A stretch of DNA of 54,002 nucleotides from a virus: positions 1 through 54,002 of IMG/VR virus record IMGVR_UViG_3300018481_000027; one strand, 5' to 3'. How positions within the stretch are numbered: the first letter of the stretch is position 1; every line of letters begins with the position of its first letter. Positions 206 through 38,792 of the stretch are shown in pieces. Position numbers and translations under genes: made by a program. A model generated the notes under the pieces. It saw only the letters and a list, made by a program, of their open reading frames with translations, did not search any database and was not told the origin of the DNA.

Positions 206-499
206 CTATCCTTCAGGTTGAGCTTGAGCAGAAAGCGCTTGTACTTCTCCTTGTTGAACCTTGCGATGAACACCACTAACGTTCTCTCGCACGATCTCGT
301 CTATGGCTTGCTGGATTGCGAAGCTTTGATCAGCTTCAGAGAGGTTGGTGGAGGTGCGTGCCACCCTTGCCAGGAGGCCGGGGGTGTTGTAACCAGCATT
401 CAGATCCCAGGCAAACCACTCATCCCACTGTGTCCATGGGTCGAATGGATTGTCCATCGTCGTCAGCATGTGCTCAGCACGTCCTTCGGTATCAGTCAC
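206..499 (-). CDS. Conserved phage hypothetical protein (97 aa)
   Basis: Acidic soluble protein of 97 residues. Its GTG start overlaps the TAG stop of the upstream RNA-polymerase-like gene (TAGTG), so the two are translationally coupled. The middle part, around NPFDPWTQWDEWFAWD, and the following helical stretch (SEADQSFAIQQAIDEIV) resemble a small protein I associate with many Gram-positive phages, but I know no function. No membrane segment or metal motif is visible. The coupling suggests it may work with the polymerase-like protein; that is inference only. Confidence 0.8.
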   Translation of the reverse strand: MTDTEGRAEHMLTTMDNPFDPWTQWDEWFAWDLNAGYNTPGLLARVARTSTNLSEADQSFAIQQAIDEIVRENVSGVHRKVQQGEVQALSAQAQPEG

Positions 500-3387
500 T
501 ATCCACCTCCATCTGCGATACCTGACATCAAGGTGGACACCGCAATGCCCAAGGCCCTTGACACCTCAGAGGGAGTAGCACCCGATGCCAACATCTGCTT
601 GGCACGTGCTGTTGCAACAGGAGTCATCACTGGATTGACTCGAGGCGTAGCCCGCTCACGGATCACGTCCAGATCAGAGTTCTTGAGAATCCTCTCCAAC
701 ATGTGATTGGAGATAGCCCCGTTCTGGATAGCGTCCCATTCCTTGTCGGTGATGGGGGAGTCCTTAGATCCAAGACGTACCTTGCCTGCACCTGTACGCA
801 GTCGAGCTTCGTTCAGTGCTTGACCCTTGATCTTCCTCTCTTCATCCTTCTCCATGCCAGGATTGGCACGCTTACGATCCGCCACTATGCGTCGGGCTAC
901 CGCCTGGGCCTGCCTCTCTAGGGGGGCATTCTTCTCAGCACGAAGCAACTTCGCTGACAGCGAATCAACCTCATGCTTGTACACCTTGTTGGCTGAAGGT
1001 GAGTAGGGCACGGGCTTGACGCTAATCAGTTCCCTACGTGTCTCGTTGGCCAAGGCCTTGAGTCGGTTGGAATGATCAGCATAGATCTGCTCCATACGTG
1101 TACCTCTACCAGGTGTAGAGACCAACGTATAGGCATCGTCCGTTTCAGCCAGCTTCTGAGAACGGAACGTAGCGTCCTTACCGTCTTTCCTCTTCTCACC
1201 CGTAGGGTCCCAGAGCTTCTTACCAGTACGGTTGTCTACCGTACCAGAAGAGATTCGAGTACGTCCAGGACCAGCGGCCTTAGCCTTCCTCTTCTTGGGA
1301 TGTGTCTGTGCCGTAGCACGGGTGATGAGAGTAGCCGCACCACGGGCTTGCCCAGTCTTCGGGTTCACCCCTTGATACGTCTTCTTCAGATCCAAGATTC
1401 CGTTAGCGCGTTCAGACGCCTTGAAATCAAGGTTGTGCTTCTCAGAATCAATGACCACCATAGAGTGCTTTACCGCACGAGCAAGCTCGTCGTTTGAGGC
1501 ACCCCTGATTGTCATGTCTGAGATGAGGTTTGTTACGTTCCCCATCTCATTCTGTTTTCTGACCTTGTTGGGGTTCTTCGGGTTTCCCTTGGAATCCACC
1601 CCGTAATCGACAGACCTGGACTTGGCGTTGTAGACGCCCCCATCGATCGTACGCATCCCGTCATAGGGACCGTAGTCAGCTTGCGGATCGAAGCCTTTCA
1701 GCTTTTCGAGTGCCGGGGTATGAGTGATCTGTCCCTTGTTGTTCGGAATGACCACCACATGGTCACCATCAAAGTCGGCGCCCGACAACCTCTCGGCTAC
1801 CTTGGGATGGATGGCCACGGCATCCGGGACTTCGCTATCCCGGAACATCTTCTTGGCCTCACGCGACCGGTTGTTGACGACCAGTTCCGGAATCTCGAAC
1901 TTTCCGGCATGCGGGAAGCGTACGAGAGCCACTCGTTCGCCGTTCTCGAACGTAGGCGCGTAGATTTCGTTTGGCTTGACGTGATTCGACGGAAGAATCA
2001 CCTTGGTTGCCTGATTCGGCATATTGACCGCTTTGAGATGCACGGCCGCCGCATCAGTTTCTTCCGCAAACGTTTCGAGAAGCTTCCTCTTGATCTGCGG
2101 GTTGGTGAGACTTCTGATCTGCTCGAGCTCTTCACGACGACGCTCATAAGTCAGATTCAGCTGTGTTTCAGCCAATTCTGGCTTCTGCTTGGAAAGCACT
2201 TGGCTGGACAGAGTTCGCGACCACTTGTCCCAGTCGCCTTCTTCGTTGATAAGATTCATCGCCGAAGAAACCTTGCCCTTGCTGTTCAGGATCTGACCGC
2301 CATCCTTGATCACAGCACCAAACGGATTACCCTTATCGACCTCTCCCGTTTCCGGATCCACTTTGAGCGGCTTCATCGCCTCGAGCTTGTTACCCGTACT
2401 CGACTTGTTGGTGTTGAACTGCAGGTCCACACCGTCAGGGAGATCGTCCTTATAGACGGCCATACCCTTGAGGTAGTGTGTCCCATTCACCGCGATTCGA
2501 ACCTGGGCGTAGCGAGACTTACCGAGAGAGACATCCGGAACGCCGGGACGCACATAGATCACGCCGTCAGCGTCAGCTCCACCGTCTTCCTTATAGCGAA
2601 TAGCCACTCGCTTAGCGGAAATGTTCAACGGCGGCTGGATGCCAAGGTCTCCTCTGAAAGTCCGGCCGTTGTCATCGGACTTCTCCGAGATCAGGCGGAT
2701 TTCGTTACGCTGAGCCCAAGCTTGTTTCTGGGTAACGCCGGGAGGGACGAGGACCTTGTACTTCGTCATCTCGCCCGTACCGACTTGCGGAGCGTTGAAG
2801 GTATGAACTCGATAGCCCTCTTCCTTGAGCATGGAGAGAGCGGTAGCGAACTTGTCGTCGCTGATCCCGATTCTCGTGGCCGGATTGTCACCAATCGGCA
2901 GATCGAGATTGACCTTGGAACCAACGTCAATGATGCCCTTCTCATCGACTTGACGCTTGAGCATGTCTGCCGTTTGCTGGAGAATATCCAACTTCTCCTG
3001 ACGACCCGGCTCCAGAAGCGAACGAACAGTGGACTCGTTGATGTCCATCTGCCTTGCAATCGCAGATGCACCCATGCCCTTATCCCGCAACTTCTGAGCA
3101 GTACGAATCTGTTCGATCTTCGTTTCCGTAACCGCACGAGACTTCAGAGCCCGAAGATCAGCGACGGTCATCTGCTGATCCTTGATGATGTTCCCGTCCT
3201 TGTCAACGGGAGAATATGCCTTGGCGATCTGGGAATCCGACATCTTGTCGATCTTCCTGTGCTGCTCGATGGTCTCCAGGAAAGTCTTCGATCGCTGCAG
3301 AGGATTCTTTCCCGATCCCCACGGATAACGTCCTGACTTACGGAGGATACCGTAATGAGCCAGGTATTCCTCTTCTTGCATGCGCAC
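499..3387 (-). CDS. Putative DPBB-type (YonO-like) RNA polymerase, DFDGD motif
   Basis: 962-residue protein. Residues 523-548 contain AIHPKVAERLSG followed by ADFDGDHVVVIP (D538, D540, D542). This matches the catalytic segment of RNA polymerase beta' (HP-V-x4-FNADFDGD-x5-P), whose three aspartates bind Mg. Upstream residues 485-503 (ERVALVRFPHAGKFEIPELV) fit the beta' strand before that loop. Residues 98-126 form a helix-turn-helix (RDKGMGASAIARQMDINEST), and a second HTH-like segment lies at the C-terminus (GATPSEVSRALGIAVSTLM). Residues 8-24 carry YLAHYGILRKSGRYPWG, a motif of phage structural proteins. Single-chain polymerases with this signature include SPbeta YonO and crAss-like phage enzymes. 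Function as a phage transcriptase is inferred; the DFDGD block is seen. The start codon lies in a strongly overlapping operon context. Confidence 0.75.
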   Translation of the reverse strand: MRMQEEEYLAHYGILRKSGRYPWGSGKNPLQRSKTFLETIEQHRKIDKMSDSQIAKAYSPVDKDGNIIKDQQMTVADLRALKSRAVTETKIEQIRTAQKLRDKGMGASAIARQMDINESTVRSLLEPGRQEKLDILQQTADMLKRQVDEKGIIDVGSKVNLDLPIGDNPATRIGISDDKFATALSMLKEEGYRVHTFNAPQVGTGEMTKYKVLVPPGVTQKQAWAQRNEIRLISEKSDDNGRTFRGDLGIQPPLNISAKRVAIRYKEDGGADADGVIYVRPGVPDVSLGKSRYAQVRIAVNGTHYLKGMAVYKDDLPDGVDLQFNTNKSSTGNKLEAMKPLKVDPETGEVDKGNPFGAVIKDGGQILNSKGKVSSAMNLINEEGDWDKWSRTLSSQVLSKQKPELAETQLNLTYERRREELEQIRSLTNPQIKRKLLETFAEETDAAAVHLKAVNMPNQATKVILPSNHVKPNEIYAPTFENGERVALVRFPHAGKFEIPELVVNNRSREAKKMFRDSEVPDAVAIHPKVAERLSGADFDGDHVVVIPNNKGQITHTPALEKLKGFDPQADYGPYDGMRTIDGGVYNAKSRSVDYGVDSKGNPKNPNKVRKQNEMGNVTNLISDMTIRGASNDELARAVKHSMVVIDSEKHNLDFKASERANGILDLKKTYQGVNPKTGQARGAATLITRATAQTHPKKRKAKAAGPGRTRISSGTVDNRTGKKLWDPTGEKRKDGKDATFRSQKLAETDDAYTLVSTPGRGTRMEQIYADHSNRLKALANETRRELISVKPVPYSPSANKVYKHEVDSLSAKLLRAEKNAPLERQAQAVARRIVADRKRANPGMEKDEERKIKGQALNEARLRTGAGKVRLGSKDSPITDKEWDAIQNGAISNHMLERILKNSDLDVIRERATPRVNPVMTPVATARAKQMLASGATPSEVSRALGIAVSTLMSGIADGGG

Positions 3388-3965
3388 TACGACACCTCCT
3401 CTCTCAGGGCATTGAGGACACCATCAAAATGTACGATCTTATCCATGATCCCCTTTATGTAGGCAGGATTGACAGTGTCCAAAGTAACACTACCATCCTT
3501 GTAGATTCGGAGCTCAATGGCTCTGAGGGAAAACGGGTCTATCCCATACTCGAGACAGAACAATGCCGCGTACACATACAGCTGGTACATCGAAACTCGA
3601 GTTACTCCTGTCTTGAGATCGCTGATACGAAGAATCCGATAGCGATAGGCGATGGCGTCTACCGTACCAAAAGCGTTCGGCGAATAGAACAGCACAACCT
3701 CAGGAGACATCTTGTACTGAATGCACTGGTTGATGTATAACCCAACCGTGGTTCGCTCATCGTCTTGGACGATGTTTTCTTCGATACAGATCGCAGCGTA
3801 GCGATGTTGCTCAACACCTTCCAGTGCCGCGCGCAGTGTCTTGTATCGAAACCTCAGTTTCTCTTCGTCGTAGTTGATCCAGTGGTACGAACTAGGACTG
3901 AGGAACGCATGCTGACCCTCGAGATGCGAATGCCTCTTGAAGCGCAGTGAGCACCTCCTCTTCAT
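3387..3965 (-). CDS. PD-(D/E)XK (Cas4/RecB-like) exonuclease
   Basis: 192-residue protein with the RecB/Cas4-type nuclease core: GTVDAIAYRYRILRISDLKTG supplies motif II/III (D...D-x-K), and YQLYVYAALF is the usual Q-x3-Y helix. Such enzymes degrade DNA ends in phage recombination or host DNA breakdown. The N-terminal segment HAFLSPSSYHWINYDEEKL is typical of phage members of the family. The assigned ATG overlaps the preceding nuclease gene by 74 nt, and an SD-like GAGGAGG sits inside the first codons. A CTG start near 3947 is therefore possible. Confidence 0.8.
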   Translation of the reverse strand: MKRRCSLRFKRHSHLEGQHAFLSPSSYHWINYDEEKLRFRYKTLRAALEGVEQHRYAAICIEENIVQDDERTTVGLYINQCIQYKMSPEVVLFYSPNAFGTVDAIAYRYRILRISDLKTGVTRVSMYQLYVYAALFCLEYGIDPFSLRAIELRIYKDGSVTLDTVNPAYIKGIMDKIVHFDGVLNALREEVS

Positions 3966-4224
3966 TCTCGGGGTAGATGAACGCCGCGAACGACATCTTG
4001 TTCATCAGATCCACGTAGTAGTCCTGGTTGGGACGCTTCTTGGCGGTAGCCGATGCCTTGACGTCCAGCATGGCCCAGAACGGACCCCAGAAGATCGTGA
4101 GGTCGAGAATTCCTTGTCGATAGTTCGGATCGTTCTTGAGGATCTCGCACCCAGGAAACAGCCGCTTCAGCCTACGAATCAACTTTGCCTGGTAAGTCGC
4201 TTCGGTCACGAAACCCCCTTTCAC
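3892..4224 (-). CDS. VRR-NUC / PD-(D/E)XK-like endonuclease
   Basis: 110-residue protein. QGILDLTIFWGPFWAMLDVKAS gives the PD-(D/E)XK signature (G-x-x-D then D-V-K), preceded by a helical segment TYQAKLIRRLKRLFPG as in VRR-NUC and resolvase-like phage nucleases. It is the first gene behind a recurring-type promoter (4270-4295), with a possible leader terminator between. Its 3' end overlaps the Cas4-like nuclease gene, so the two nucleases are likely co-expressed. Substrate not predictable. Confidence 0.75.
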   Translation of the reverse strand: MKGGFVTEATYQAKLIRRLKRLFPGCEILKNDPNYRQGILDLTIFWGPFWAMLDVKASATAKKRPNQDYYVDLMNKMSFAAFIYPENEEEVLTALQEAFASRGSACVPQS

Positions 4225-4230: not shown

Positions 4231-4266
4231 AAAAAAGAAAAGAGGAGATCGGAATATTACCCTCCT
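4231..4266 (-). terminator. Leader terminator/attenuator candidate before nuclease gene
   Basis: On the minus strand AGGAG ... CTCCT (14-nt loop) is followed by a T-rich run (TCTTTTCTTTTTT). It begins at about the expected transcription start of promoter 4270-4295 and ends before the nuclease gene's ribosome binding site, so it could act as an attenuator. The stem is short. Confidence 0.45.
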
Positions 4267-4269
4267 TCT

Positions 4270-4295
4270 ATTATATGGCGCGAATTACATGCGTC
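4270..4295 (-). promoter_or_regulatory. Recurring phage promoter (P1)
   Basis: Minus strand -10 TATAAT preceded at 3 nt by TTCGCG (proximal box). The distal box is degenerate. A CAGATACTG site lies immediately upstream (about 4290-4301). Confidence 0.65.
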
Positions 4296-5464: not shown

Positions 5465-5573
5465 CAGTCTCCTCTTCTTTGTCGTCTGCTTCGAGGTGTT
5501 TGTCGATGATCTCGTGAATCGGATCGAGTGGGTTCTGCAGAGCGAGATGTACTTCCCAATCCTTGTCGTACAT
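5415..5573 (-). CDS. Small acidic hypothetical protein (52 aa)
   Basis: ATG overlaps the upstream stop (TGATG), a strong coupling signal. Product MYDKDWEVHLALQNPLD... with an acidic centre (LEADDKEEETD). It overlaps the next gene by about 50 nt, which is unusual for this genome and lowers confidence in its C-terminal part. Confidence 0.55.
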   Translation of the reverse strand: MYDKDWEVHLALQNPLDPIHEIIDKHLEADDKEEETDGEPSRLCRRASQGDV

Positions 5574-5800
5574 CAGTCATCCGCCAGCAGAGCCTTGAGG
5601 TAGTGCCTTCCGTACTTCGTGAGCGCCCGGTTGTGTGTATCGACCACGATCTCGGCCAACTCCATGGATTCCATCACTCCCACCAGAGGGTCGAACTCGG
5701 ACCGCTTCTCGATGTCGTTGGACACCAGAGCATAAATACCTCGGCCTCGTCTGTCATCCGTACGCCACAAACGCATCTCCGGATCGTTCAAGGGGGCCAT
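5573..5800 (-). CDS. Hypothetical protein (75 aa)
   Basis: The ATG at 5800 is chosen because AGGAGAGACG precedes it; an upstream in-frame ATG lacks a binding site. Product MAPLNDPEMRLWRTDDR..., soluble, with no recognised domain. Coupled to both neighbours. Confidence 0.7.
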   Translation of the reverse strand: MAPLNDPEMRLWRTDDRRGRGIYALVSNDIEKRSEFDPLVGVMESMELAEIVVDTHNRALTKYGRHYLKALLADD

Positions 5801-5808
5801 CGTCTCTC

Positions 5809-5925
5809 CTATCGTTTGAAGAACAGCGCCCAGATCACTACGCCGAGGCAAACCAGAGACAAACCCAGGAATATGACTCCGTAGACGTCCTTCCCTTCAA
5901 AATCGAAAAGTATCTCTCCGATCAC
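5809..5925 (-). CDS. Single-pass membrane peptide (38 aa)
   Basis: GTG start with GGAGGTG upstream, overlapping the stop of the 65-aa gene (GTGA). Product has an acidic N-terminus (MIGEILFDFEGKD), one TM helix (VIFLGLSLVCLGVVIWALFF) and a KR end, predicting N-out or short-tail topology. Function unknown. Confidence 0.65.
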   Translation of the reverse strand: MIGEILFDFEGKDVYGVIFLGLSLVCLGVVIWALFFKR

Positions 5926-6119
5926 GCTGGTGCACCTCCTTTCGAATTTCCTTCTCGAGCCCGTCTCCATACTCGCAGAAGCCTCAAGTACTCAAACCGA
6001 GGACGATCCCCGATATGGGGTCCATCATGGCCTTCGGGACCGACTTCACAGTATCTGATTGTCTGTCGACCGAAGACCTTTCCTTTTGAGTTCCAGGGAC
6101 ACGGTTTTTCGGGTGGCAT
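5922..6119 (-). CDS. Small Cys/His-containing protein (65 aa)
   Basis: ATG preceded by ATCGGAGGTCC. Product MPPEKPCPWNSKGK...RYCEVGPEGHDGPH has two Cys and two His that could bind one metal, then a basic C-terminus. It is the first gene downstream of the repeat region 6120-6600, so its transcription probably starts there. Confidence 0.7.
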   Translation of the reverse strand: MPPEKPCPWNSKGKVFGRQTIRYCEVGPEGHDGPHIGDRPRFEYLRLLRVWRRAREGNSKGGAPA

Positions 6120-6600
6120 GGACCTCCGATCTTGGCAAATCTTGGCAAATGGGTCGAAAAGGGCCTAAATCGCGTCTCGCCCGAGAGCATAATATCTGAA
6201 AAAACCACGCAATTTGCGAGAAAACCGTTCACCCCGGACAATCCCAGTATCTGCCAAGATTTTTGAGGTAAAAAGTTTTTGTATATTACATTCCCAGTAT
6301 CTGTCCCAATATCTGTCGTTATTACGTATGTATCTATATACTTCTGCGCGCGCGTGCGTAGGTAGAATAGACATATCTAGGCAATATGATTTACCCAAGA
6401 AAACAGATACTGAGAACTTCGGATGAAAAAGTTTTTTGCCCTAAAATCTTGGCATGACATTTAGCCAAGAAAAACCGCGTATTTGCAGGGAGTTTACAAC
6501 TGAGATTTGCCAAAATAAAATCTTGGCAAAATGCTTGGCAAGCCCAAAATGAGCGTTTACGCGCCAACTTTAGGCTCAAAACAGTCCTCCCAGTATCTGA
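6120..6600. repeat. AT-rich iteron-like region; candidate replication origin or control region
   Basis: About 480 bp without a convincing gene, more AT-rich than its surroundings. It contains roughly eight copies in both orientations of a TTGCCAAGAT-type word (two tandem at 6130-6150, others near 6252, 6446, 6463, 6508, 6520 and 6533). It also has six or seven CAGATACTG-type sites, including an 11-bp tandem pair (ACAGATAYTGG) near 6296-6316. A pyrimidine/purine alternating (GC)n-like stretch occurs at 6344-6358. Clustered iterons in an AT-rich gap are typical of origins or operator arrays. The precise role is inferred. Confidence 0.6.
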
Positions 6601-6858
6601 TTATCCCCTTTTGACCCCCTTCAACCCCCTGGGCCGTCGCTGCGGACCTCTCATCCTCACCAGCTCCTCCCTATGAAGGGCCGTAACCGTCTCCTGCGAC
6701 CTGACCAGACGGGTCAGATACCCCACCCTGCGGTCCAGCTTCTTCTCGTGGGCGAAGAGGTTCACCGCCCCGATCAGGTGGGTCTCCGCCTCTCTCAGGT
6801 GTTCGGCCAGCTGGTCATCGACTGACAACGCCTTTTTACGCTTTTGTGTCATATCCAT
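6601..6858 (-). CDS. Coiled-coil hypothetical protein (85 aa)
   Basis: Highly charged helical protein (MDMTQKRKKALSVDDQLAEHLREAE...) with a basic C-terminus. The second Met (codon 3) has better spacing from AAAAGG. Possibly DNA-associated because of its charge, and it is the gene directly before the repeat region. Function unknown. Confidence 0.65.
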   Translation of the reverse strand: MDMTQKRKKALSVDDQLAEHLREAETHLIGAVNLFAHEKKLDRRVGYLTRLVRSQETVTALHREELVRMRGPQRRPRGLKGVKRG

Positions 6859-6928
6859 ACCTTTTCATCAGTTTTCTCTCGGATGGCCTCTAAGGGGCCT
6901 TTACGTGGCTCTCAGAGGGTGTCTAGAC

Positions 6929-7198
6929 CTAGTCTCCCCTTTTCTTCCGCTCTCGGTAGTGCAACATACCCCGAAACAGCTCGGCTTCGATGAATACCTC
7001 GTCGTCTGACTCGTTGGAGTTGGTCAACGCGCGACCCAGAGCGCGACCGAGATCGAAGGCCGTCATTCCCGGCGGAAAACTTCCATGACGGGTGTACTCA
7101 GCCACCGTATCCAATTGATCAGCCGCCCAGTCCCGCTGGGTCATGATCATCCCCTCACCCACAGCGGCTTCACCTTCAAGCAAGCCTTCGGATTCCAT
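6929..7198 (-). CDS. Hypothetical protein (89 aa)
   Basis: ATG directly follows the upstream stop (TAGATG) with AAGGGG at good spacing. Acidic N-terminus, then a helical body (MTAFDLGRALGRALTNSNESDD). A start at MTQRDW, behind GAGGGG, is an alternative. No domain recognised. Confidence 0.65.
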   Translation of the reverse strand: MESEGLLEGEAAVGEGMIMTQRDWAADQLDTVAEYTRHGSFPPGMTAFDLGRALGRALTNSNESDDEVFIEAELFRGMLHYRERKKRGD

Positions 7199-7423
7199 CT
7201 ATGTCCCCTTTGCTAGTAGGTGAGCAGACTGTGCCGTTCTGAACCCGGTTTGCCACATATAGGCCGTCTCCCCGTTGAAAAACGAGCAGAAGATCCGGTC
7301 CCAAGCGCCCCAGCGCTCGACCACCCGATAGGTTCCGCCACCCCCTAATGGAAACCGTACGCCGACGAGCTCCTTGGGTACGTTGGTGAACAGAGTGAGC
7401 TGCTCGAATTCATGATCAGGCAT
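7199..7423 (-). CDS. Hypothetical protein (74 aa)
   Basis: ATG one base after the helicase stop with AAGGGAG upstream. Product MPDHEFEQLTLFTNVPKEL... is beta-rich (GGGGTYRVVERWGAWDRIFC) and looks like a small barrel or SH3-like fold. Cotranscribed with the helicase. Function unknown. Confidence 0.7.
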   Translation of the reverse strand: MPDHEFEQLTLFTNVPKELVGVRFPLGGGGTYRVVERWGAWDRIFCSFFNGETAYMWQTGFRTAQSAHLLAKGT

Positions 7424-7424
7424 C

Positions 7425-8645
7425 TCACTCCCTTTCGTGTTGGTAGGCGAACTCGTAGAACTCGTCGCCGGTCATGTCGAAATGCTTGGTCTGGAAGCTC
7501 CGCTTCGACTTGAGCGAACGCCAGATGGCCCAGTCGATGGCTGCCTTGGACCGAAGGGCGTAGTAGAAGAGATCGGTGAACGGAGTGTTGATCCGGTCCG
7601 TACGTCCATGACTCTGTTCCCACAGCTTGTACGAATAGGTCAACGACCAGAACACCGTGGTATCCGTGGTGATGCAGTTCCAGCCTTCCGCCCCCGCCAC
7701 GTACTGAACGGCGTAGACCCACTCTTCCGTCTCGGGAATCTCCTCATGCTTGTGCCCATTCCACTCCGCGTAGTTGGTCACGTGCTTCAGCGATCGGAGA
7801 ATTTCCAGCTCGTAGTCGAAGTTGTAGAAGACGATCAACCGTGGATGCTTGGCCATCAGCTTCCGCAACTCTTTCATCCTCGATGGATGAGTGTTGGCCA
7901 CTCGCCGCATCTGCTGGAAGAGATCGGCCACATCGCGGATAGGTTTGTCATCGAACGGATTCCAGCGCCCATGCGATACTCGAGCCATGAGCAGCTCATC
8001 ATGCTCACACCACACGTTGATGGGATGCCGCACGGTTTCCTTGGCGTACGGCATGTGCACCAAAATGGCGTTACGGTGCTTGACCAAGCGGTTGACGTTG
8101 ACGTAGCGCTCGACCTTGAAGTACTTTACGAAGGGGGCCTGGATGACGTGCTCGCCCTTGAACTCAGTCCGGTTTCGGTAGAAGCCGTTGGCTACGAATA
8201 CGGGTATATAGTCTAACCACGTATCGCCGGGTGTCGCCGACAGCATTATCCAGCGGTTCGATTTCGCAATCTTCAGAAACGATTTCGACCACTTCCCAGA
8301 CCCAACCAGTCTCTGTTCGTCGAAGATAAAGAATGCGTTTTTCACCCCCACGTACTTCTCGATGTTGTTCCAGGAATCGACGGTGAGGACACCGTGCAGA
8401 GTAGCTTCTGGATCTCTGCCGATGCCGAACTTGGAGGCTTCCATCTCCCAGTCCAGAGAGTCTCGCTTCTTGGCGGTGGTGATCACGTAAATATCTTCAT
8501 GTTCTTCGGTCAGCGCGTAGAAAGCCAGCCCCACCCGGGTCTTACCTGAGCCCACGCCGCCCCAGAGGATGTTGCCGTCTTCCAGCTTGGCCAGTGCCTT
8601 CTTCTGGTGATCGGCCAGCTCCACCGCCGTGCGAATCTCTCCCAT
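7425..8645 (-). CDS. SF2 DNA helicase (SNF2/DEAD-type)
   Basis: 406 residues. Walker A GGVGSGKT (29-36), Walker B variant FIFDEQRLV (a DEQR box), motif [12 protein letters not shown], and a motif VI-like segment [13 protein letters not shown] with the arginine finger. These are ATP-driven translocases on duplex or single-stranded nucleic acid in phage replication and recombination. Start supported by AAAGGAGGTGACGGT. The length is compact, with no accessory domain, consistent with small phage helicases. It is not the replicative helicase domain, which is in the polymerase fusion. Confidence 0.85.
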
Positions 8646-8660
8646 ACCGTCACCTCCTTT

Positions 8661-8813
8661 CTAATTATTGATCTTGGGTTCCTCCGTGCGTACAAGGAGA
8701 ATCGAGTAACCGCATGCCTTGCAGCGAATATGTCCTTCGTGAGCCACGATCTGCTCGAAGATGGGAGCTTCCCAACCCCCGCATTCATCACAGAACACGG
8801 TATGGATGGTCAT
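8661..8813 (-). CDS. Zinc-ribbon protein (50 aa)
   Basis: Two CxxC knuckles (FCDECGG and RCKACGY) about 22 residues apart form a zinc ribbon. Product MTIHTVFCDECGGWEAP.... The gene lies directly upstream of the helicase. Likely a nucleic-acid or protein adaptor; role inferred from the fold class only. Confidence 0.75.
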   Translation of the reverse strand: MTIHTVFCDECGGWEAPIFEQIVAHEGHIRCKACGYSILLVRTEEPKINN

Positions 8814-8821
8814 TGACTCCA

Positions 8822-9022
8822 TTATCTATGTACCTCGGGGTCGTAGTAAGCCAGAGGAGTTATCCCCACTACAGCCAGACGATGAATTTCGGCGTTGTAG
8901 TACACACTGACTTCGCCTCGAGCATAAGCCCGCTTAGCCCCCTGGGCTTCTTCCTCGCTCTCCCAAGGTCCCCGTACCTCAACTTCTTCGGTCTCGGGGT
9001 TGAATATCACCAGGACCCACAT
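8822..9022 (-). CDS. Hypothetical protein (66 aa)
   Basis: ATG with CAAGGAGGCGAGGTA upstream. Product MWVLVIFNPETEEVEVRGPW... looks like a ferredoxin-like or SPOR-like small alpha/beta domain (strand, EEEAQGAKRAYARG helix, strand). Function unknown. Confidence 0.75.
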   Translation of the reverse strand: MWVLVIFNPETEEVEVRGPWESEEEAQGAKRAYARGEVSVYYNAEIHRLAVVGITPLAYYDPEVHR

Positions 9023-12173: not shown

Positions 12174-12204
12174 AACTTCCTTTCTAGGGATAGCGAGTGG
12201 TCTC

Positions 12205-12230
12205 ACTATATGCCCAGTTTTTGCCGCGAA
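12205..12230 (-). promoter_or_regulatory. Recurring phage promoter (P3)
   Basis: Distal TTCGCG, degenerate proximal box, -10 TATAGT, at the standard 14-nt distance. The distal box shares bases with the T run of the preceding terminator. Confidence 0.7.
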
Positions 12231-13653: not shown

Positions 13654-14115
13654 TTACCCGCAGGCGGCCCAGGGGGCCGTACCGTTTGCCCAGAACTCAC
13701 GACGGGCCGCGATCTCTTGATCTAGCGGAGACCAATCGTGATACGTAGCACGGTTATGATACGTACCAGGCATGAACTGAAATTTGCCGTAGGCGCCGGA
13801 TCCTCCCGCATTCGGCGTCGTATAGCGAATCGGGTCATACTCCGGACTCGTGCCGCTTTCCCCGTACCAGGTACAGTCGGGAATATAGAGATTCGTCCAG
13901 TGCTTCCACTGTCGGAGGCGCCTATTGTTATGGCGCTCGATCCGTCGGTGGTGACGGCGCTTCTCCTTCAAATATGCCTTCTTGAGCTCCTTGAAGTTTG
14001 TGTACTTGATCTTGACCTTGTGTTCCTTGGTTGGTGGTGCCCACCGCCAGTCCGCCGCTGCGGACGAGGTACACGTAAAGGTGAACAACAACAGCAGTAA
14101 TGCGAAGCGCTTCAC
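13654..14115 (-). CDS. Secreted Rpf/lysozyme-like transglycosylase
   Basis: 153 residues. GTG start with AGAAGGGGGATATTT upstream. N-terminal signal peptide (MKRFALLLLLFTFTCTSSAAA), a basic coiled linker (~45-85), then a lysozyme-like domain: CTWYGESGTSPEYDPIRY holds the catalytic Glu, GAYGKFQFMPGTYHN is the typical G-x-x-Q-F core, and the chain ends near WAAC. This matches resuscitation-promoting-factor and SLT-type peptidoglycan hydrolases. It may weaken host peptidoglycan at entry or release. It is transcribed between an ncRNA region and the ArsR regulator, far from the tail and lysis genes. Confidence 0.8.
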   Translation of the reverse strand: MKRFALLLLLFTFTCTSSAAADWRWAPPTKEHKVKIKYTNFKELKKAYLKEKRRHHRRIERHNNRRLRQWKHWTNLYIPDCTWYGESGTSPEYDPIRYTTPNAGGSGAYGKFQFMPGTYHNRATYHDWSPLDQEIAARREFWANGTAPWAACG

Positions 14116-14139
14116 AAATATCCCCCTTCTGGTTTAGCA

Positions 14140-14174
14140 GGGGTGTCCAACTTATGGGCAGAGTCAGACACCCC
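14140..14174 (-). promoter_or_regulatory. 8-bp leader hairpin upstream of the Rpf-like gene
   Basis: GGGGTGTC pairs perfectly with GACACCCC across a 19-nt loop in the 5' leader. It could protect the leader or control translation. Confidence 0.5.
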
Positions 14175-14197
14175 CGTTCCTTCTTTTCTTCGCCCAA

Positions 14198-14232
14198 AAA
14201 ATCAACCATCGACTAGGTTCGTAATGGCTAGA
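14198..14232 (-). terminator. Intrinsic terminator ending the ncRNA region
   Basis: TAGCCAT pairs with ATGGTTG (with G-U pairs) and is followed by a TTTTTT run on the minus strand. Confidence 0.65.
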
Positions 14233-14960
14233 ACGTAGGCCCTTTACTAACGGCCCATAGGTCCTCCTTTGTCCTATTGGCAGAAATCTGTGGAACCGCC
14301 ATGAAACATGCTGGAGTCTCCCGTGTAGGTCGCTGCCCCACATCCCCTATCCAGCTTCACCCTCTTACGCATCTCCTAGTGACCTGGACAAGCCGGTAGA
14401 GACGAAAGGGTTCCCTCCTACAAATATGCCTATCCTGAGGGGCGACTCGTAGCCTACCTCGTACGAGAGCCCGCAGTCGCAGACCCTCAGGAGTCGGACT
14501 TCCTGAAATAGTAGAGCAGGCCTACTTTCCTTGCCGAGGATGACCCGGGGCTGGGGTTACAACCCTCCAGGTTTTACGCCGATCGTCAAAACAACCTCTG
14601 GCAAAGCTTATATGCGGGCGTCCCACGCTTCCCCCATGGGCGGGAGAAAGCTCCGTCATCCCGCGCCAGCCCGTCATCCACCCCCGATCAATAGGGGCCG
14701 AGCCTCCCGATCTTTCTATGATAATATGCTGGAGTCACCCTATCCGGACCGCGGCTTCTCTCCCCGCGCGGACAATCCCCTATCCAGCTTCGTCCTCTTA
14801 CTATGCGTATTAGCCCGGAAGGCATGATCACACCTAGGACTCCCTACCCTCACCCCAACTAAGCTTTCCTCTGCGCTGGCACAACCGGGGTGATCGGTTG
14901 AATCCCGCCTGCCAGCGCGTGCTTCGGCTCCTACGAAGCCGGGCACCCACACAAATATGA
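14198..14960 (-). ncRNA. Large structured non-coding RNA candidate (~760 nt)
   Basis: Gene-free region on the minus strand between the mIHF-like and Rpf-like genes. Strong complementary pairs include GCGCTGGCA/TGCCAGCGC (14874-14919), GCTTCG/CGAAGC, GCGGGA/TCCCGC, CCTGAGGG/CCCTCAGG nested with GCGACT/AGTCGC (14433-14492), and GCTGGA/TCCAGC twice. The last pair belongs to a duplicated module (14309-14372 and 14725-14797) sharing GTAAGAGG, GAAGCTGGATAGGGGAT and GACTCCAGCAT around unrelated inner hairpins. The region ends in an intrinsic terminator. Canonical tRNA arms are absent. Large ornate phage RNAs such as GOLLD and ROOL are the nearest known concept; homology is not claimed. Confidence 0.6.
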
Positions 14961-14964
14961 ACGG

Positions 14965-15294
14965 TTACCGAAGCATCGAGACGAGTTCAGTCCGTTGCCG
15001 CACACTCAATCCCCCGACGGTCTTCGCGGGAGAGATGCGACACTGCTGGAGTACTTTGTTTGTCTTGACCCGCCCGTACTTAGGGCAGCTAATGAGCAGG
15101 TCAAATATCTTCATGGTCTCTAGCCACGTTGGTGGTGGTTCCAGTAGCAGATTTTTGATCTGCACTTTCCTGGCCTTCAAGTCGCGCTTCAGTTGCGCAC
15201 GCTTGCCTCGGACTTCGTTGGCGCGGGCCAACGCTTCCATTCTCTGAACCAGGGATCGGTCTGGAACTCCAGTCTTCTTCGTTTTGACGGCCAT
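14965..15294 (-). CDS. mIHF-like nucleoid-associated DNA-binding protein
   Basis: 109 residues with the actinobacterial integration host factor pattern: a basic helix (MEALARANEVRGKRAQLKRDLKARK), the linker VQIKNLLLEP, then an H2TH-like region (KIFDLLISCPKYGRVKTNKVL) and the basic tip ISPAKTVGGLSVRQRTEL. Host mIHF bends DNA, aids phage integration and organises the nucleoid. The phage copy could shape phage chromatin or redirect host transcription. Its ATG overlaps the upstream TAA. The structured ncRNA region starts directly after its stop. Confidence 0.85.
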   Translation of the reverse strand: MAVKTKKTGVPDRSLVQRMEALARANEVRGKRAQLKRDLKARKVQIKNLLLEPPPTWLETMKIFDLLISCPKYGRVKTNKVLQQCRISPAKTVGGLSVRQRTELVSMLR

Positions 15295-15900
15295 TTAGGC
15301 CGCCTTCTCGACGCCTGCCTGTTCTCCCGCCTCAGCCTCCTCCGGCGCGGGCCCCTGCAGACCCTCTCCTCGCTGCTCTTCCACGGCTTCGGCTTCCCGC
15401 GCCGCTTCGGTCACCTCGCTGTGGGTACCGTTCCCCTGCAGAGACGCGACCACCTCGTCGTAATCCTGCGGCTCCTGGGGCACGTAGTTCATGCCCTTCC
15501 AGGAGAGCACCGACCCGTCTGCTTGCGCGAAGCATTCCGGGCCGATGACCACGATGTTGGGATCGTCTTGGATCTCGGAGAGCTTCTCTCCGGGGTCTGC
15601 CTCCTGCTCGAGCTGGACCACCTCGTCGAACGAGAGATGGAACGCCTTGTTGGTGTAGATCTTGTAGCCCCGCTCCGTGTAGAGGATCCAGTCGCCGACC
15701 ATGGCCTTGGTCTGACGAGGATTCTTGGGGTGATGGACCCGCACCTTGATGTACTTCTTCCCGGTTCCCTTTCCGGGAATCTCGTCCTGGCAGATCTCGC
15801 CTTGACACCAGGCGGCGACCTCATCGAAGTTGTCCCGCGCGACACGGATCGCTTCGACATAAAGCGGCTTCCGGATGAACTTCGTTGTTGTGACACTCAT
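15295..15900 (-). CDS. 'PGD-I' family protein with long acidic tail (201 aa)
   Basis: Start Met is the first in frame; its AAAGGA is unusually far (about 16 nt), so the start is uncertain. The core FIRKPLYVEAIRV...AMVGDWILYTERGYKIYTNKAFHLSFDEV matches the layout of the two smaller paralogues at 16940 and 17313 (MKYRKKP... PGDYIVT...). The C-terminal ~60 residues are Glu/Ala-rich. Such proteins are common in phages and have no known function. Confidence 0.75.
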   Translation of the reverse strand: MSVTTTKFIRKPLYVEAIRVARDNFDEVAAWCQGEICQDEIPGKGTGKKYIKVRVHHPKNPRQTKAMVGDWILYTERGYKIYTNKAFHLSFDEVVQLEQEADPGEKLSEIQDDPNIVVIGPECFAQADGSVLSWKGMNYVPQEPQDYDEVVASLQGNGTHSEVTEAAREAEAVEEQRGEGLQGPAPEEAEAGEQAGVEKAA

Positions 15901-15949
15901 GAAACTGACTAGAATGTCCTTTCGTATGGTTGGCTTGCCTGCGGATGTA

Positions 15950-16033
15950 CTACTCGTCTGAGCTGCTGGAGATCCGTGCGAGCACGAAGCCCACAAGGAT
16001 CCCCACGAGCATGATGGCGGCGCCGGTGATCAC
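15950..16033 (-). CDS. Single-pass membrane peptide (27 aa)
   Basis: GTG overlaps the SSB gene's stop (TAGTG). Product is one TM helix (ITGAAIMLVGILVGFVLARI) plus SSSSDE. Typical of very small phage membrane proteins. Confidence 0.6.
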   Translation of the reverse strand: MITGAAIMLVGILVGFVLARISSSSDE

Positions 16034-16512
16034 TACGAACTGCTCTCCTCCATCTCCGAGTACTTCCGTTCGAGCTGGTCTTCCTCGATCGTGATGTACA
16101 TGGTCTGGACATAGGCCGAGATGCCGGTTCGGCCGTGCACTTCGTAGTTGTAGGGACGGACGATGAGATCGACATTGGTGATGTCGGCCCAGTCGAGGGT
16201 TTCCGCCGTCTCCTCAGTGATCGGGACCTTCTTCCCCAGATCGTTGATCGTCATGATCTTCGGGGGTCGGCCCTTTCCGTAACCCACCTTGACCGGGAGC
16301 CACGGGGTCGGCTCCTCTTCCTCCTCGACGTCATCGCGCGGCTGGAGGTACTTGACGTTCCAGCCGTCGGCCAGCATGGCCTCGGCGACGTCGTTCGGAA
16401 GGATTACTCCGAAGTTGCGGTCGCCCTCCCGGTTGTACTGCCCCTCCTTGCCCGTGAAATTGCGGAAGACGAGTCTCACGCCCTCCATGACTACAGTTTG
16501 ATCCGCTGGCAT
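16033..16512 (-). CDS. Phage single-stranded DNA-binding protein
   Basis: 159 residues. The pattern LVFRNFTGKEGQYNREGDRNF...MLADGWNVKYLQPRDD...LPVKVGYGKGRPPKI...TNVDLIVRPYNYEV...AYVQTMYITIEED is characteristic of an actinophage SSB-like family with an OB fold, and the acidic C-terminus (SEMEESSS) fits an SSB partner-binding tail. It should coat ssDNA during replication by the fusion polymerase. Confidence 0.8.
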   Translation of the reverse strand: MPADQTVVMEGVRLVFRNFTGKEGQYNREGDRNFGVILPNDVAEAMLADGWNVKYLQPRDDVEEEEEPTPWLPVKVGYGKGRPPKIMTINDLGKKVPITEETAETLDWADITNVDLIVRPYNYEVHGRTGISAYVQTMYITIEEDQLERKYSEMEESSS

Positions 16513-16537
16513 AGCTCTCCTTCTTCTTGAACTTGGC

Positions 16538-16750
16538 TTACTTCTTTGCCTGCAGGAGTATCAACGAAGCATACGCCTGCGTCTTGGCCAACAGCAACGG
16601 AACCATCACCCAGTTGCCGCTGGAGTCACGCATCTTCTCCGGAGGAAAGCCCAGTCTCTCGGCTTCCCTTGTCACCTCGTCGATCTGTAGGTCGATCTGG
16701 TTGATCAACTTGATCGTGTCCCGGCGCAGAGTATCGGGGCTGATGATCAC
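16538..16750 (-). CDS. Helical hypothetical protein (70 aa)
   Basis: GTG start with AAGGGAG upstream. Two-helix protein (LRRDTIKLINQIDLQIDEVTR...). Overlaps the 3' part of the next upstream gene. Unknown function. Confidence 0.7.
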   Translation of the reverse strand: MIISPDTLRRDTIKLINQIDLQIDEVTREAERLGFPPEKMRDSSGNWVMVPLLLAKTQAYASLILLQAKK

Positions 16751-16943
16751 TGAGACTCCCTTTGAGGTACGCGTCTACCTCTTTGTCGGTAACGGAGAAA
16801 TCGGCGAATAACCCTCGAGAATCTACGCACATCGTAGCCTCCCCGACGACGCGACGTTCGCCTCCGTAGTTTACCACCAGAGGGACGGTCTTGCCGTCTA
16901 ACTCTGCCAGAGCTTCCTTGGTGAATATGACGTGCTCCATCAT
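16626..16943 (-). CDS. Hypothetical protein (up to 105 aa), large 3' overlap
   Basis: The first ~70 residues (MEHVIFTKEALAELDGKTVP...VVGEATMCVDSRG...KEVDAYLKGSLSD) look like a genuine compact domain. The last ~40 residues are read through the start of the 70-aa gene in another frame and look low-complexity, so the frame may be shifted or the overlap real. Confidence 0.6.
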   Translation of the reverse strand: MMEHVIFTKEALAELDGKTVPLVVNYGGERRVVGEATMCVDSRGLFADFSVTDKEVDAYLKGSLSDHQPRYSAPGHDQVDQPDRPTDRRGDKGSRETGLSSGEDA

Positions 16944-17305
16944 CCCTCGGTTCGTGACGATGGGTGGGCGGGTGGCTCGTACACCTCGTACTGAGCTTCG
17001 AAGTCTGCCGCTTTCATCCTGTACAGCTCGCCCCGCCGATTGGTGACGATATAATCACCTGGGCAGACGGTCTCCTCGCCGTTCACTCCGTCGAGAATGC
17101 CGTGCTTCTGCATGACATTGCCGCACTCGGGGCAAAATCTCTCCCCGGGAATTTTGAGGGATCGGAAATATCGAACGACCTCCCCCTCTGACAAGGCGTC
17201 GGAACCCTCAGACAACTTGATCGGCTTCGACTTGTCTTGCGGATGATCTCCGTTGGTAAACCACTGCGAGGCCTCGGTGAGGACCGGCTTCTTTCGATAC
17301 TTCAT
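16940..17305 (-). CDS. 'PGD-I' family protein (121 aa)
   Basis: Begins MKYRKKPVLTEASQW and contains a CPECGNVMQKHG zinc knuckle followed by CPGDYIVTNRRGELYRMKAADFEAQYEVYEPP. Clear tandem paralogue of the next gene and more distantly of 15295. Known only as a phage family of unknown role. Confidence 0.8.
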   Translation of the reverse strand: MKYRKKPVLTEASQWFTNGDHPQDKSKPIKLSEGSDALSEGEVVRYFRSLKIPGERFCPECGNVMQKHGILDGVNGEETVCPGDYIVTNRRGELYRMKAADFEAQYEVYEPPAHPSSRTEG

Positions 17306-17312
17306 TGTCTCC

Positions 17313-17732: not shown

Positions 17733-17742
17733 TCGGCTCCTT

Positions 17743-18665: not shown

Positions 18666-18677
18666 CAGCTTTCCTTT

Positions 18678-19093: not shown

Positions 19094-19100
19094 ATCGGAA

Positions 19101-27096: not shown

Positions 27097-27198
27097 ATAA
27101 ATCCTCGAATTTTGGGTTGGGCAAAAATGAAAGGAGATGATCTTTTCCGAGTTCATCAGTCGGCGACCCCTGGCGGGGTCCTTATCTGGTATCCTTTC

Positions 27199-27223
27199 AC
27201 TATAAGGCGTGGATTCCGCGCGA
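27199..27223 (-). promoter_or_regulatory. Recurring phage promoter (P4)
   Basis: Distal TTCGCG, proximal TCCACG, -10 TATAGT. The distal box is fused to the T run of the preceding terminator. The leader holds a GACCCC/GGGGTC hairpin near 27170. Confidence 0.75.
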
Positions 27224-27420: not shown

Positions 27421-27446
27421 GGGTCTCCTTAGATTGGTTCTTTCTC

Positions 27447-27472
27447 ATTACATGACGTGTTTTACGCGCGAA
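27447..27472 (-). promoter_or_regulatory. Recurring phage promoter (P5)
   Basis: Distal TTCGCG, proximal AACACG, -10 TGTAAT, standard spacing. Confidence 0.75.
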
Positions 27473-27834: not shown

Positions 27835-27869
27835 GAAAATACTTCCTTTCAGAGGGGTTTGTAGGTCTC

Positions 27870-27895
27870 ATTATACAGCGTGAAATATGCGCGAA
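27870..27895 (-). promoter_or_regulatory. Recurring phage promoter (P6)
   Basis: Distal TTCGCG, proximal TTCACG, -10 TATAAT: a full-consensus copy. It directly follows the structured region 27896-28391. Confidence 0.8.
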
Positions 27896-31227: not shown

Positions 31228-31283
31228 AAAAAAAGAGAAACCTCGCATTGGCATGCGATTGCGTTTTTACGCTGGTCTCTCCT
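31228..31283 (-). terminator. Leader terminator directly after promoter P7
   Basis: GAGAGACC...GGTTTCTC outer stem with inner GCGTAAAAACGC and GCATGCCAATGC hairpins, then seven Ts. It begins at the expected start of the P7 transcript and precedes the 268-aa gene. Confidence 0.75.
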
Positions 31284-31309
31284 ATTAGATGACGTGAATT
31301 TCCCGCGAA
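31284..31309 (-). promoter_or_regulatory. Recurring phage promoter (P7)
   Basis: Distal TTCGCG, proximal TTCACG, -10 TCTAAT. Overlaps the end of the 116-aa gene. Confidence 0.75.
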
Positions 31310-34502: not shown

Positions 34503-34586
34503 AAAAAAAGAGAGACCCATGTTGTCTCAGTGCCTCATAAAGGCTCTTCAACTCTGGTGCCTCATAAAGGCTCCAGCATGGGTCTC
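34503..34586 (-). terminator. Branched leader terminator after promoter P8
   Basis: Outer stem GAGACCCATG/CATGGGTCTC encloses two near-identical hairpins (each GAGCCTTTATGAGGCAC) in tandem, then seven Ts. It starts at about the P8 transcription start. The tandem repeat is seen on the + strand near 34531 and 34558. Confidence 0.8.
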
Positions 34587-34612
34587 ATTATGTGGCGTGA
34601 ATTTCCCGCGAA
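34587..34612 (-). promoter_or_regulatory. Recurring phage promoter (P8)
   Basis: Distal TTCGCG, proximal TTCACG, -10 CATAAT. Confidence 0.8.
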
Positions 34613-35065: not shown

Positions 35066-35128
35066 AAAAAAGAGAAGAGGATCGGGAGGATTAGGTTTCC
35101 GATCATGCCGACTGGGTCGGTCTCTTCT
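35066..35128 (-). terminator. Leader terminator directly after promoter P9
   Basis: GAGAAGAG ... CTCTTCTC outer stem with an inner CCGACCCAGTCGG hairpin, then TTTTTT, starting at the predicted P9 transcript start. Confidence 0.75.
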
Positions 35129-35129
35129 C

Positions 35130-35155
35130 ATTAGGTGACGTGAATTTCCCGCGAA
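35130..35155 (-). promoter_or_regulatory. Recurring phage promoter (P9)
   Basis: Distal TTCGCG, proximal TTCACG, -10 CCTAAT. Immediately follows the 146-aa gene's stop. Confidence 0.75.
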
Positions 35156-36602: not shown

Positions 36603-36634
36603 AAAAAATGAGAGCCCGTGTGAGGGGCTCTCAT
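36603..36634 (-). terminator. Intrinsic terminator after the 72-aa gene
   Basis: AATGAGAGCCCC...GGGCTCTCATT stem with CACACGG loop and T6. Confidence 0.85.
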
Positions 36635-36640
36635 TGGGCA

Positions 36641-36859: not shown

Positions 36860-36890
36860 AGCAACTCTCCTAGAGTTAGTAGTGGCTTTC

Positions 36891-36916
36891 ATTATGTGGC
36901 GTGAAATTTTCGCGAA
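36891..36916 (-). promoter_or_regulatory. Recurring phage promoter (P10)
   Basis: Distal TTCGCG, proximal TTCACG, -10 CATAAT. Confidence 0.8.
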
Positions 36917-37113: not shown

Positions 37114-37144
37114 AATAGTCTCCTAAGTTTGTGTTTAGTCTTCT

Positions 37145-37170
37145 ATTATACCCCGTGAAAAACACGCGAA
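37145..37170 (-). promoter_or_regulatory. Recurring phage promoter (P11)
   Basis: Distal TTCGCG, proximal TTCACG, -10 TATAAT; full consensus. Confidence 0.8.
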
Positions 37171-37408: not shown

Positions 37409-37440
37409 GGTTTTCTCCTTTTGAGTTTGATTTAGTTCTC

Positions 37441-37466
37441 ATTAGAGGCCATGAAATTCCCGCGAA
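37441..37466 (-). promoter_or_regulatory. Recurring phage promoter (P12)
   Basis: Distal TTCGCG, proximal TTCATG, -10 TCTAAT. Confidence 0.75.
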
Positions 37467-37620: not shown

Positions 37621-37654
37621 TTGAATCTCCTTGCGTTTGAGGTTGATACTTCTC

Positions 37655-37680
37655 ACTATAGGGGGTGAAAAATACGCGAA
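37655..37680 (-). promoter_or_regulatory. Recurring phage promoter (P13)
   Basis: Distal TTCGCG, proximal TTCACC, -10 TATAGT. Confidence 0.75.
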
Positions 37681-37801: not shown

Positions 37802-37832
37802 GGGGGTCTTTCTGGTAGAGGGGATTGGTCTC

Positions 37833-37858
37833 ATTAGATCCCGTGAATTCTACGCGAA
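37833..37858 (-). promoter_or_regulatory. Recurring phage promoter (P14)
   Basis: Distal TTCGCG, proximal TTCACG, -10 TCTAAT. Confidence 0.8.
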
Positions 37859-37893: not shown

Positions 37894-37899
37894 TTGAGG

Positions 37900-38136: not shown

Positions 38137-38157
38137 AATCTCCTTTCGTTTGATCTC

Positions 38158-38182
38158 ATTAGAGGCCGTGAAATAGACGCGA
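38158..38182 (-). promoter_or_regulatory. Recurring phage promoter (P15)
   Basis: Distal TTCGCG, proximal TTCACG, -10 TCTAAT. Confidence 0.8.
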
Positions 38183-38434: not shown

Positions 38435-38458
38435 AAAGTCTCCTTGGGTTATAGGTTC

Positions 38459-38484
38459 ATTATATGCCCTGAAAAACCCGCGAA
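38459..38484 (-). promoter_or_regulatory. Recurring phage promoter (P16)
   Basis: Distal TTCGCG, proximal TTCAGG, -10 TATAAT. Confidence 0.75.
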
Positions 38485-38741: not shown

Positions 38742-38766
38742 GTTATCTCCTTGTTTGAGTGGGTTC

Positions 38767-38792
38767 ATTATAAACCGTGAAATATACGCGAC
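38767..38792 (-). promoter_or_regulatory. Recurring phage promoter (P17) with upstream CAGATACTG-type sites
   Basis: Distal GTCGCG, proximal TTCACG, -10 TATAAT. Two CAGATACTG-like sites lie just upstream (about 38800 and 38822), so this promoter combines both motif classes. Confidence 0.8.

What the first reader, a model, noticed from the sequence alone, without database searches (positions are those of the whole stretch)
499..3387. Phage-encoded single-chain RNA polymerase candidate with beta'-type DFDGD core
Seen: ADFDGD at residues 537-542 embedded in HP-V...L-S-G-ADFDGDHVVVIP, plus two HTH segments. Known: this aspartate triad is the catalytic signature of DPBB RNA polymerases, including phage YonO and crAss-like enzymes. 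Inference: the phage transcribes part of its genome itself. The fusion with an N-terminal YLAHYGIL...YPWG motif (known from virion proteins) and HTHs is unusual and could mean a virion-packaged or self-targeting polymerase.
Basis: partly seen in the sequence, partly recalled or inferred. Interest (0 to 1): 0.9.

Follow-up and report, generated by a model that had tools for sequence, protein, structure and literature searches.

The report
Injected phage RNA polymerase and promoters
A phage of Gram-positive soil bacteria carries its own one-piece RNA polymerase that is probably packed into the virus particle by a short protein tag and, once injected, switches on the phage's early genes at a DNA signal that ordinary bacteria essentially lack.

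Summary
The ORF is real (minus strand, 3387..499, 962 aa). It belongs to PHROG 4291, a family in about 250 sequenced phages of Streptomyces, Arthrobacter, Gordonia, Rhodococcus, Lactococcus and others, usually annotated 'HTH protein', 'RNA-dependent RNA polymerase' or hypothetical. DFDGD is invariant in 33 relatives. The predicted catalytic core (pLDDT 87) matches QDE-1, plant RDR2 and the active Thermus-phage RNA polymerase (P74-26 gp62/P23-45 gp64), so a two-barrel RNA polymerase is well supported; activity is untested. Two new findings bear on function. (1) A 29-bp motif, TCGCR-N4-TTNCA-N5-TATARTRRGA, precedes early genes in the window (16 sites, one strand, about 0.1 expected). It recurs in family phages of hosts from two phyla; 31 of 37 motif-bearing IMG/VR records encode this polymerase; 84,980 bacterial and archaeal genomes hold 5 hits. 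I propose it is the polymerase's promoter. (2) The N-terminal LAHYG...GRYPWGSG tag is more conserved than the catalytic barrels and resembles HYGVKGMKWG tags on head-region proteins. In phage 1706 the only two tagged proteins, one being this polymerase, were deposited as 'structural protein'. Best reading: a virion-packaged, early-gene polymerase.

The parts
499..3387 (-). Two-barrel RNA polymerase gene, 962 aa (PHROG 4291)
3307..3363 (-). N-terminal tag, residues 9-27 (LAHYGILRKSGRYPWGSGK); near-invariant, predicted disordered; proposed virion-packaging signal
3163..3255 (-). HTH-like region 1, residues about 45-75
   Evidence: sequence and model; no Pfam hit of its own
3016..3099 (-). HTH 2, residues 97-124 (HTH_23)
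2248..2625 (-). First barrel (DPBB-A) region, residues about 255-380, with invariant K307; boundaries approximate
1714..2013 (-). Second barrel (DPBB-B), residues 459-558
   Evidence: also matches the p97 N-domain barrel and RNAP largest subunits
1762..1779 (-). Catalytic motif ADFDGD, residues 537-542
1372..1566 (-). Conserved helical region after DPBB-B, residues 608-672 (probable bridge-helix region; inferred)
511..621 (-). C-terminal HTH-like region, residues about 923-959
206..499 (-). Small conserved gene directly downstream of the polymerase (PHROG 4303, 97 aa); candidate partner protein
3387..3965 (-). Exonuclease-like gene (PHROG 3953), same operon
3892..4224 (-). VRR-Nuc-type endonuclease gene, same operon
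4266..4294 (-). Promoter-like site (divergent) before the nuclease-exonuclease-polymerase operon
12201..12229 (-). Promoter-like site
27195..27223 (-). Promoter-like site
27443..27471 (-). Promoter-like site
27866..27894 (-). Promoter-like site
31280..31308 (-). Promoter-like site
34583..34611 (-). Promoter-like site
35126..35154 (-). Promoter-like site
36887..36915 (-). Promoter-like site
37141..37169 (-). Promoter-like site
37437..37465 (-). Promoter-like site
37651..37679 (-). Promoter-like site
37829..37857 (-). Promoter-like site
38154..38182 (-). Promoter-like site
38455..38483 (-). Promoter-like site
38763..38791 (-). Promoter-like site

Best explanation
The gene encodes a single-chain, two-barrel DNA-dependent RNA polymerase. 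During head assembly it is probably taken into the virion through its disordered N-terminal tag, as other tagged proteins of these phages seem to be, and it is injected with the genome. In the cell it recognises a 29-bp promoter, TCGCR-N4-TTNCA-N5-TATARTRRGA, probably with its own HTH domains on the upstream elements (a near-direct repeat about one helical turn apart) while the core opens the TATA box. It then transcribes the array of small early genes between the tail and replication modules, a replication operon, and the operon that encodes the polymerase itself. Shown here: the gene, the fold (by prediction), the conserved catalytic triad and tag, and the motif with its strand bias, genome location and association with the polymerase gene. 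Inferred: enzymatic activity, DNA as template, promoter reading by this protein rather than another phage factor, and packaging and injection.
For: Fold: core model pLDDT 86.6, pTM 0.77; Foldseek E 3e-9 to QDE-1 and 5e-8 to phage gp64/gp62 RNAP; Z 15.1 RDR2, 15.0 QDE-1, 12.3 P74-26 gp62, over 357-378 residues. P23-45 gp64 is an established transcribing RNAP (PMC10770324). Catalytic DFDGD and K307 invariant in 33 relatives. Motif: 14 sites at up to 3 mismatches vs 0 in 100 shuffles; with a matrix trained only on other phages, 16 sites on the coding strand, 0 opposite. Same motif found de novo in most family phages of other hosts examined and by sequence in Streptomyces phages; leave-one-genome-out matrices find 72 coding-strand and 0 opposite-strand sites in seven genomes, including 5 in Lactococcus phage 1706. 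IMG/VR: at least 120 stretches with the exact motif; 31 of 37 records of 35 kb or more encode the polymerase; the other six look like truncated fragments; background is 250 of 50,697 phage records. Bacterial and archaeal genomes: 5 single hits in 84,980. No sigma70-type -35/-10 excess at these sites; no Sigma70 region 2 in seven family genomes. Packaging: in 1706 exactly two proteins carry the tag, orf7 and orf75 (this polymerase), and both are labelled 'structural protein' in the original record EU081845. Tag residues 9-27 are more conserved (0.82) than either barrel (0.78, 0.73) yet modelled as disordered. The tag recurs on unrelated head-region proteins, one PHROG of which is named 'virion structural protein'.
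Against: The TATAAT box is also the host sigma-A -10 element, so host transcription of these sites is not excluded. Motif and polymerase could co-occur by common descent of one phage lineage, without one reading the other. The 'structural protein' label in 1706 is a database label whose experimental basis (Garneau 2008, Virology 373:298) I could not read. The tag is not found on a second protein in this window, but the contig lacks the terminase-portal region where tagged genes sit in relatives. At least one relative (Faecalibacterium phage Oengus) is a prophage, which would start transcription after induction without virion protein. No start-site, proteomic or enzymatic data exist for this phage.
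Confidence: 0.68

Rival explanations
1. Two-barrel RNA polymerase that is made after infection, not packaged. Host RNAP transcribes the early genes from the TATAAT boxes, and the phage polymerase acts later, as YonO does for SPbeta late genes.
For: TATAAT followed by GAGA fits a host -10 plus discriminator (general knowledge). YonO transcribes late genes (PMC5467207). Temperate relatives exist.
Against: The upstream elements TCGCR and TTNCA at fixed spacing are conserved across phages of actinobacteria and Lactococcus but are essentially absent from bacterial genomes, and no -35 element is found. No motif of another type was found at structural genes, although I did not search for one systematically. 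Homologue labelled structural in 1706.
Confidence: 0.17
2. The motif is the site of another conserved phage factor (activator, repressor or specificity subunit), and the polymerase has a different role.
For: Uncharacterised genes are also conserved across the lineage: PHROG 4303 directly downstream of the polymerase, PHROG 4079, and DUF6353/PHROG 2152.
Against: Among the conserved proteins checked, only the polymerase has recognisable HTH domains; no sigma factor was found. The motif contains a TATA box followed by a conserved purine-rich start-like region, not only an operator.
Confidence: 0.12
3. A catalytically inactive or RNA-templated relative: the PHROG name 'RNA-dependent RNA polymerase' would be literally right, or the protein is a structural internal protein without activity.
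For: Best fold matches include QDE-1 and RDR2, which copy RNA; weak Pfam RdRP hit, E 0.003.
Against: Catalytic DFDGD invariant; QDE-1 also uses DNA templates (structures 7y7r-7y7t listed); the fold equally matches phage DNA-dependent RNAPs; dsDNA phage with DNA-binding HTHs; the Pfam score is below the curated cut-off.
Confidence: 0.03

Closest known systems
PHROG 4291 family, including Lactococcus phage 1706 gp75, Rhodococcus phage ReqiPoco6 gp106 and Faecalibacterium phage Oengus 'putative RNA polymerase'
   Same: Full-length homology, same tag, HTHs, DFDGD; at the genome end next to the exonuclease in the actinophages
   Different: Nothing essential; this is a new member. Function of the family is not established in the literature I could search.
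Thermus phage P23-45 gp64/P74-26 gp62 non-virion RNAP and gp96 tail-tape-fused virion RNAP
   Same: Single-chain two-barrel fold; phage-specific promoter motif that tracks the polymerase gene
   Different: No detectable sequence similarity reported here; gp64 is smaller (about 595 aa in the crystal) and is not in virions; gp96 is fused to the tape measure instead of carrying a short tag
crAss-like phage phi14:2 gp66 virion RNAP
   Same: Virion, single-chain two-barrel RNAP (per PMC10770324 and its citation of Drobysheva 2021)
   Different: Much larger fusion protein; different packaging; no direct comparison listed in my fold searches
YonO of SPbeta
   Same: About 100-kDa single-chain two-barrel phage RNAP
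   Different: YonO transcribes late genes and its promoter was undetermined (PMC5467207); no YonO match was obtained here, so relatedness is untested
QDE-1 and RDR2 (RNA interference polymerases)
   Same: Closest solved folds by Z-score
   Different: Eukaryotic, no tag, no HTH, no promoter
N4 virion RNAP
   Same: Works alike: packaged, injected, transcribes early genes
   Different: N4 vRNAP is T7-like, about 3,500 residues; unrelated fold

Membership tests
Two-barrel (double-psi beta-barrel) RNA polymerases | DxDGD metal-binding triad in the second barrel | tested here: met
   DFDGD invariant in 33 sequences
Two-barrel (double-psi beta-barrel) RNA polymerases | Two barrels in one core with the RNAP arrangement | tested here: met
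   Core model 245-800 aligns with QDE-1 681-1195 (Z about 15) and P74-26 gp62 (Z 12.3) end to end; by prediction only
Two-barrel (double-psi beta-barrel) RNA polymerases | Catalytic lysine(s) in the first barrel | tested here: inconclusive
   K307 is invariant and K328 nearly so, but no residue-level superposition was available
Two-barrel (double-psi beta-barrel) RNA polymerases | Template-dependent RNA synthesis | not testable with these tools
   Needs purified protein
PHROG 4291 | Full-length profile match | tested here: met
   E 0, 1157 bits, residues 2-958
Pfam RdRP (PF05183) | Score over curated cut-off | tested here: not met
   16.7 bits against 23.8
YonO-like RNA polymerases | Homology to YonO | tested here: inconclusive
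   YonO did not appear among fold matches; no direct comparison made
Virion RNA polymerases | Present in the virion | not testable with these tools
   Indirect: 1706 homologue labelled structural protein, shared tag
Virion RNA polymerases | Phage-specific promoters at early genes | tested here: inconclusive
   Motif found at small genes presumed early and at the polymerase's own operon, essentially none in structural modules; timing and recognition not tested
T7-like single-subunit RNA polymerases | Right-hand polymerase fold | tested here: not met
   Core is double-psi-barrel type; no T7-type RNA polymerase hit in Pfam
Sigma70-dependent promoters (for the motif) | -35 hexamer 16-18 nt before the -10 | tested here: not met
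   4 sigma70-like pairs in 26.5-41 kb against 5.4 expected by shuffling

The most novel reading that the evidence does not exclude
A widespread class of Gram-positive siphophages carries a two-barrel RNA polymerase into the cell inside the capsid by a short modular peptide tag shared with other injected proteins, and this polymerase starts without sigma factor at its own 29-bp promoter using built-in HTH domains, including at its own gene.
Probability: 0.5. Interest if true: 0.87.

Novelty: new variant of a known kind. Interest (0 to 1): 0.76.

Why it matters
If right, hundreds of sequenced phages of Streptomyces, Gordonia, Arthrobacter, Rhodococcus and Lactococcus bring their own transcription machine, which their annotations miss. 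It would supply a defined promoter for a sigma-independent two-barrel polymerase, the kind thought closest to the ancestor of all cellular RNA polymerases and for which YonO's promoter was left undetermined. It would also identify a short head-packaging tag usable to list all injected proteins of these phages, and the polymerase-promoter pair could become an orthogonal expression tool in actinobacteria.

Tried and rejected
Sequence search against PDB chains with the protein and with the alignment gave only HTH and helical chance hits. RNA_pol_Rpb1_2 family search of the window was empty. NCBIfam: nothing. Two IMG/VR scans with the spacing wrong by one or more bases returned zero; kept as spacing controls, though their letters differ slightly from the productive pattern. 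First motif search on whole coding regions collapsed onto codon periodicity and was redone on intergenic gaps. In one search the de novo motif for GirlPower was the terminator and for HotFries only part of the promoter; the promoter in those two was recognised. Idea of a repressor made from a copy of the polymerase's HTH (window 33350-33628): 32% identity, but the HTH resembles many families and no clear equivalent was seen in relatives, so not claimed. Rfam: no hit. Literature search for the motif and the tag found no description, but most subscription papers are not held.

Full report
Observation. The ORF is on the minus strand, 3387 to 499, 962 aa. The window is one IMG/VR record of 54,002 bases, apparently incomplete: its right end cuts into the capsid/protease gene and no terminase or portal was seen. 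Its gene content is that of a siphovirus related to Lactococcus phage 1706 and to many actinophages.

Family. The protein is a full-length PHROG 4291 member. tblastn finds it in 250 of 50,697 phage records, mostly Arthrobacter, Gordonia and Streptomyces phages, and 49 further loci came from IMG/VR. Annotations vary: HTH DNA-binding protein, RNA-dependent RNA polymerase, putative RNA polymerase, structural protein, hypothetical. So the gene is known, but its function is largely unrecognised.

Fold. A full-length AlphaFold2 model (pLDDT 76.6) already matched QDE-1 and RNAP largest subunits. The core alone (residues 245-800) gave pLDDT 86.6 and pTM 0.77. It matches QDE-1 (Foldseek 3e-9), the phage RNAPs gp64/gp62 (5e-8), RDR2 and, more weakly, multisubunit RNAP largest subunits. 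VIA-align gives Z 15 for RDR2 and QDE-1 and 12.3 for P74-26 gp62, covering the model end to end. The second barrel also matches the p97 N-domain barrel, as a double-psi barrel should. Sequence around the triad reads LVRFPH...IHPKVAERLSGADFDGDHVVVIP, which from general knowledge resembles the beta-prime NRAPTLHR...NADFDGDQMAVH stretch; that resemblance was not scored.

Promoter-like motif. Repeat search revealed a recurrent intergenic sequence at 27-39 kb. With the right spacing, 14 sites match within 3 mismatches and none in 100 shuffles. De novo searches of intergenic gaps found related motifs in phages of Gordonia, Rhodococcus, Arthrobacter and Lactococcus, and direct inspection showed it in two Streptomyces phages. 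Consensus from relatives: TCGCA..aaTTACAcGcccTATAATGAGA. Leave-one-genome-out matrices give 72 coding-strand sites and none on the opposite strand in seven genomes. Apart from one weak hit inside the Gordon portal gene, sites avoid the structural modules and cluster in the small-gene array after the tail genes, which in Arthrobacter clusters AM and AU was noted for its membrane proteins (PMC5513430). In the window and in GirlPower, HotFries, ReqiPoco6 and Gordon a divergent site also precedes the nuclease-exonuclease-polymerase operon; in Rickmore none was seen, and in 1706 the nearest such site lies before gp66, about 5.6 kb upstream of the polymerase gene.

Specificity. Of 37 such records of 35 kb or more, 31 encode the polymerase at E below 1e-250; two more have only marginal partial hits. 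The six without it show no exonuclease gene either, and where the DNA polymerase is present the contig ends before the polymerase's usual place, so they are probably truncated. Sites are on one strand in every record. In 84,980 bacterial and archaeal genomes there are five single hits, about what chance gives by my own estimate, and one of those five genomes carries the polymerase. Thus the whole motif is not a host promoter class, and its upstream elements are read by something the phages bring. The family's only recognisable conserved DNA-binding protein among those checked is the polymerase itself. Co-inheritance in one lineage remains the main caveat. The Thermus-phage study used the same kind of motif-gene association as support (PMC10770324).

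Packaging tag. Residues 9-27 are 0.82 conserved, above DPBB-A (0.78) and DPBB-B (0.73), though modelled as disordered. Related HYGVKGMKWG tags occur in up to seven proteins per relative, concentrated around terminase and portal. The tag is modular: it is joined to different domains, including an acetyltransferase, and the polymerase-type form GRYPWGSG or GRYKWGSG appears on non-polymerase proteins in L049 and MT835616. In phage 1706 only orf7 and orf75 carry it, and both are 'structural protein' in the original record, in which orf75 lies far from the structural genes. ReqiPoco6's original record likewise calls the homologue a structural protein, by similarity to 1706. I take this as indirect evidence for packaging.

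Mechanism and verdict. A packaged, injected two-barrel RNAP that reads its own promoters explains the tag, the HTHs, the motif at early genes and at the polymerase's own operon, and the structural label. The steps not shown are catalysis, promoter recognition and packaging in this phage. As a kind it is a new variant of virion RNA polymerase: fold known, packaging mode and promoter apparently undescribed.

Noticed in passing
window 33350-33628 (-): Stand-alone 92-aa protein whose HTH resembles residues 73-151 of the polymerase (32% identity); could compete for the same promoters, but the HTH is generic and no clear equivalent was seen in relatives.
   Followed up: partly
window 206-499 (-): PHROG 4303, a small gene directly downstream of the polymerase in the window and all five relatives whose tables show it, including 1706 gp76; candidate cofactor of the polymerase.
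   Followed up: partly
window 36607-36635, 37865-37895 (-) and similar: Intrinsic-terminator-like hairpins lie just upstream of several promoter-like sites, so the small genes look like separate terminator-promoter-gene units.
   Followed up: partly
window 19283-23119 (-): 1278-aa DNA polymerase of PHROG 4210; phage 1706 GP55, its likely counterpart, was reported as a replicase combining helicase, primase and polymerase (PMC12205980).
   Followed up: no
window 50428-51063 and 51773-52660 (-): Two major-tail-protein paralogues of the same PHROG 2645 separated by one gene, an arrangement also seen in relatives.
   Followed up: no
L054, ReqiPoco6 14111-21957; L051, GirlPower 5473-8878: Arrays of different proteins carrying HYGVKGMKWG tags near terminase and portal, including an acetyltransferase fusion and one with RNA-ligase-like similarity; possibly a set of injected proteins.
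   Followed up: partly
L062/L064, phage 1706 orf62 and orf71: Two small proteins labelled structural although encoded among replication genes, without the tag.
   Followed up: no
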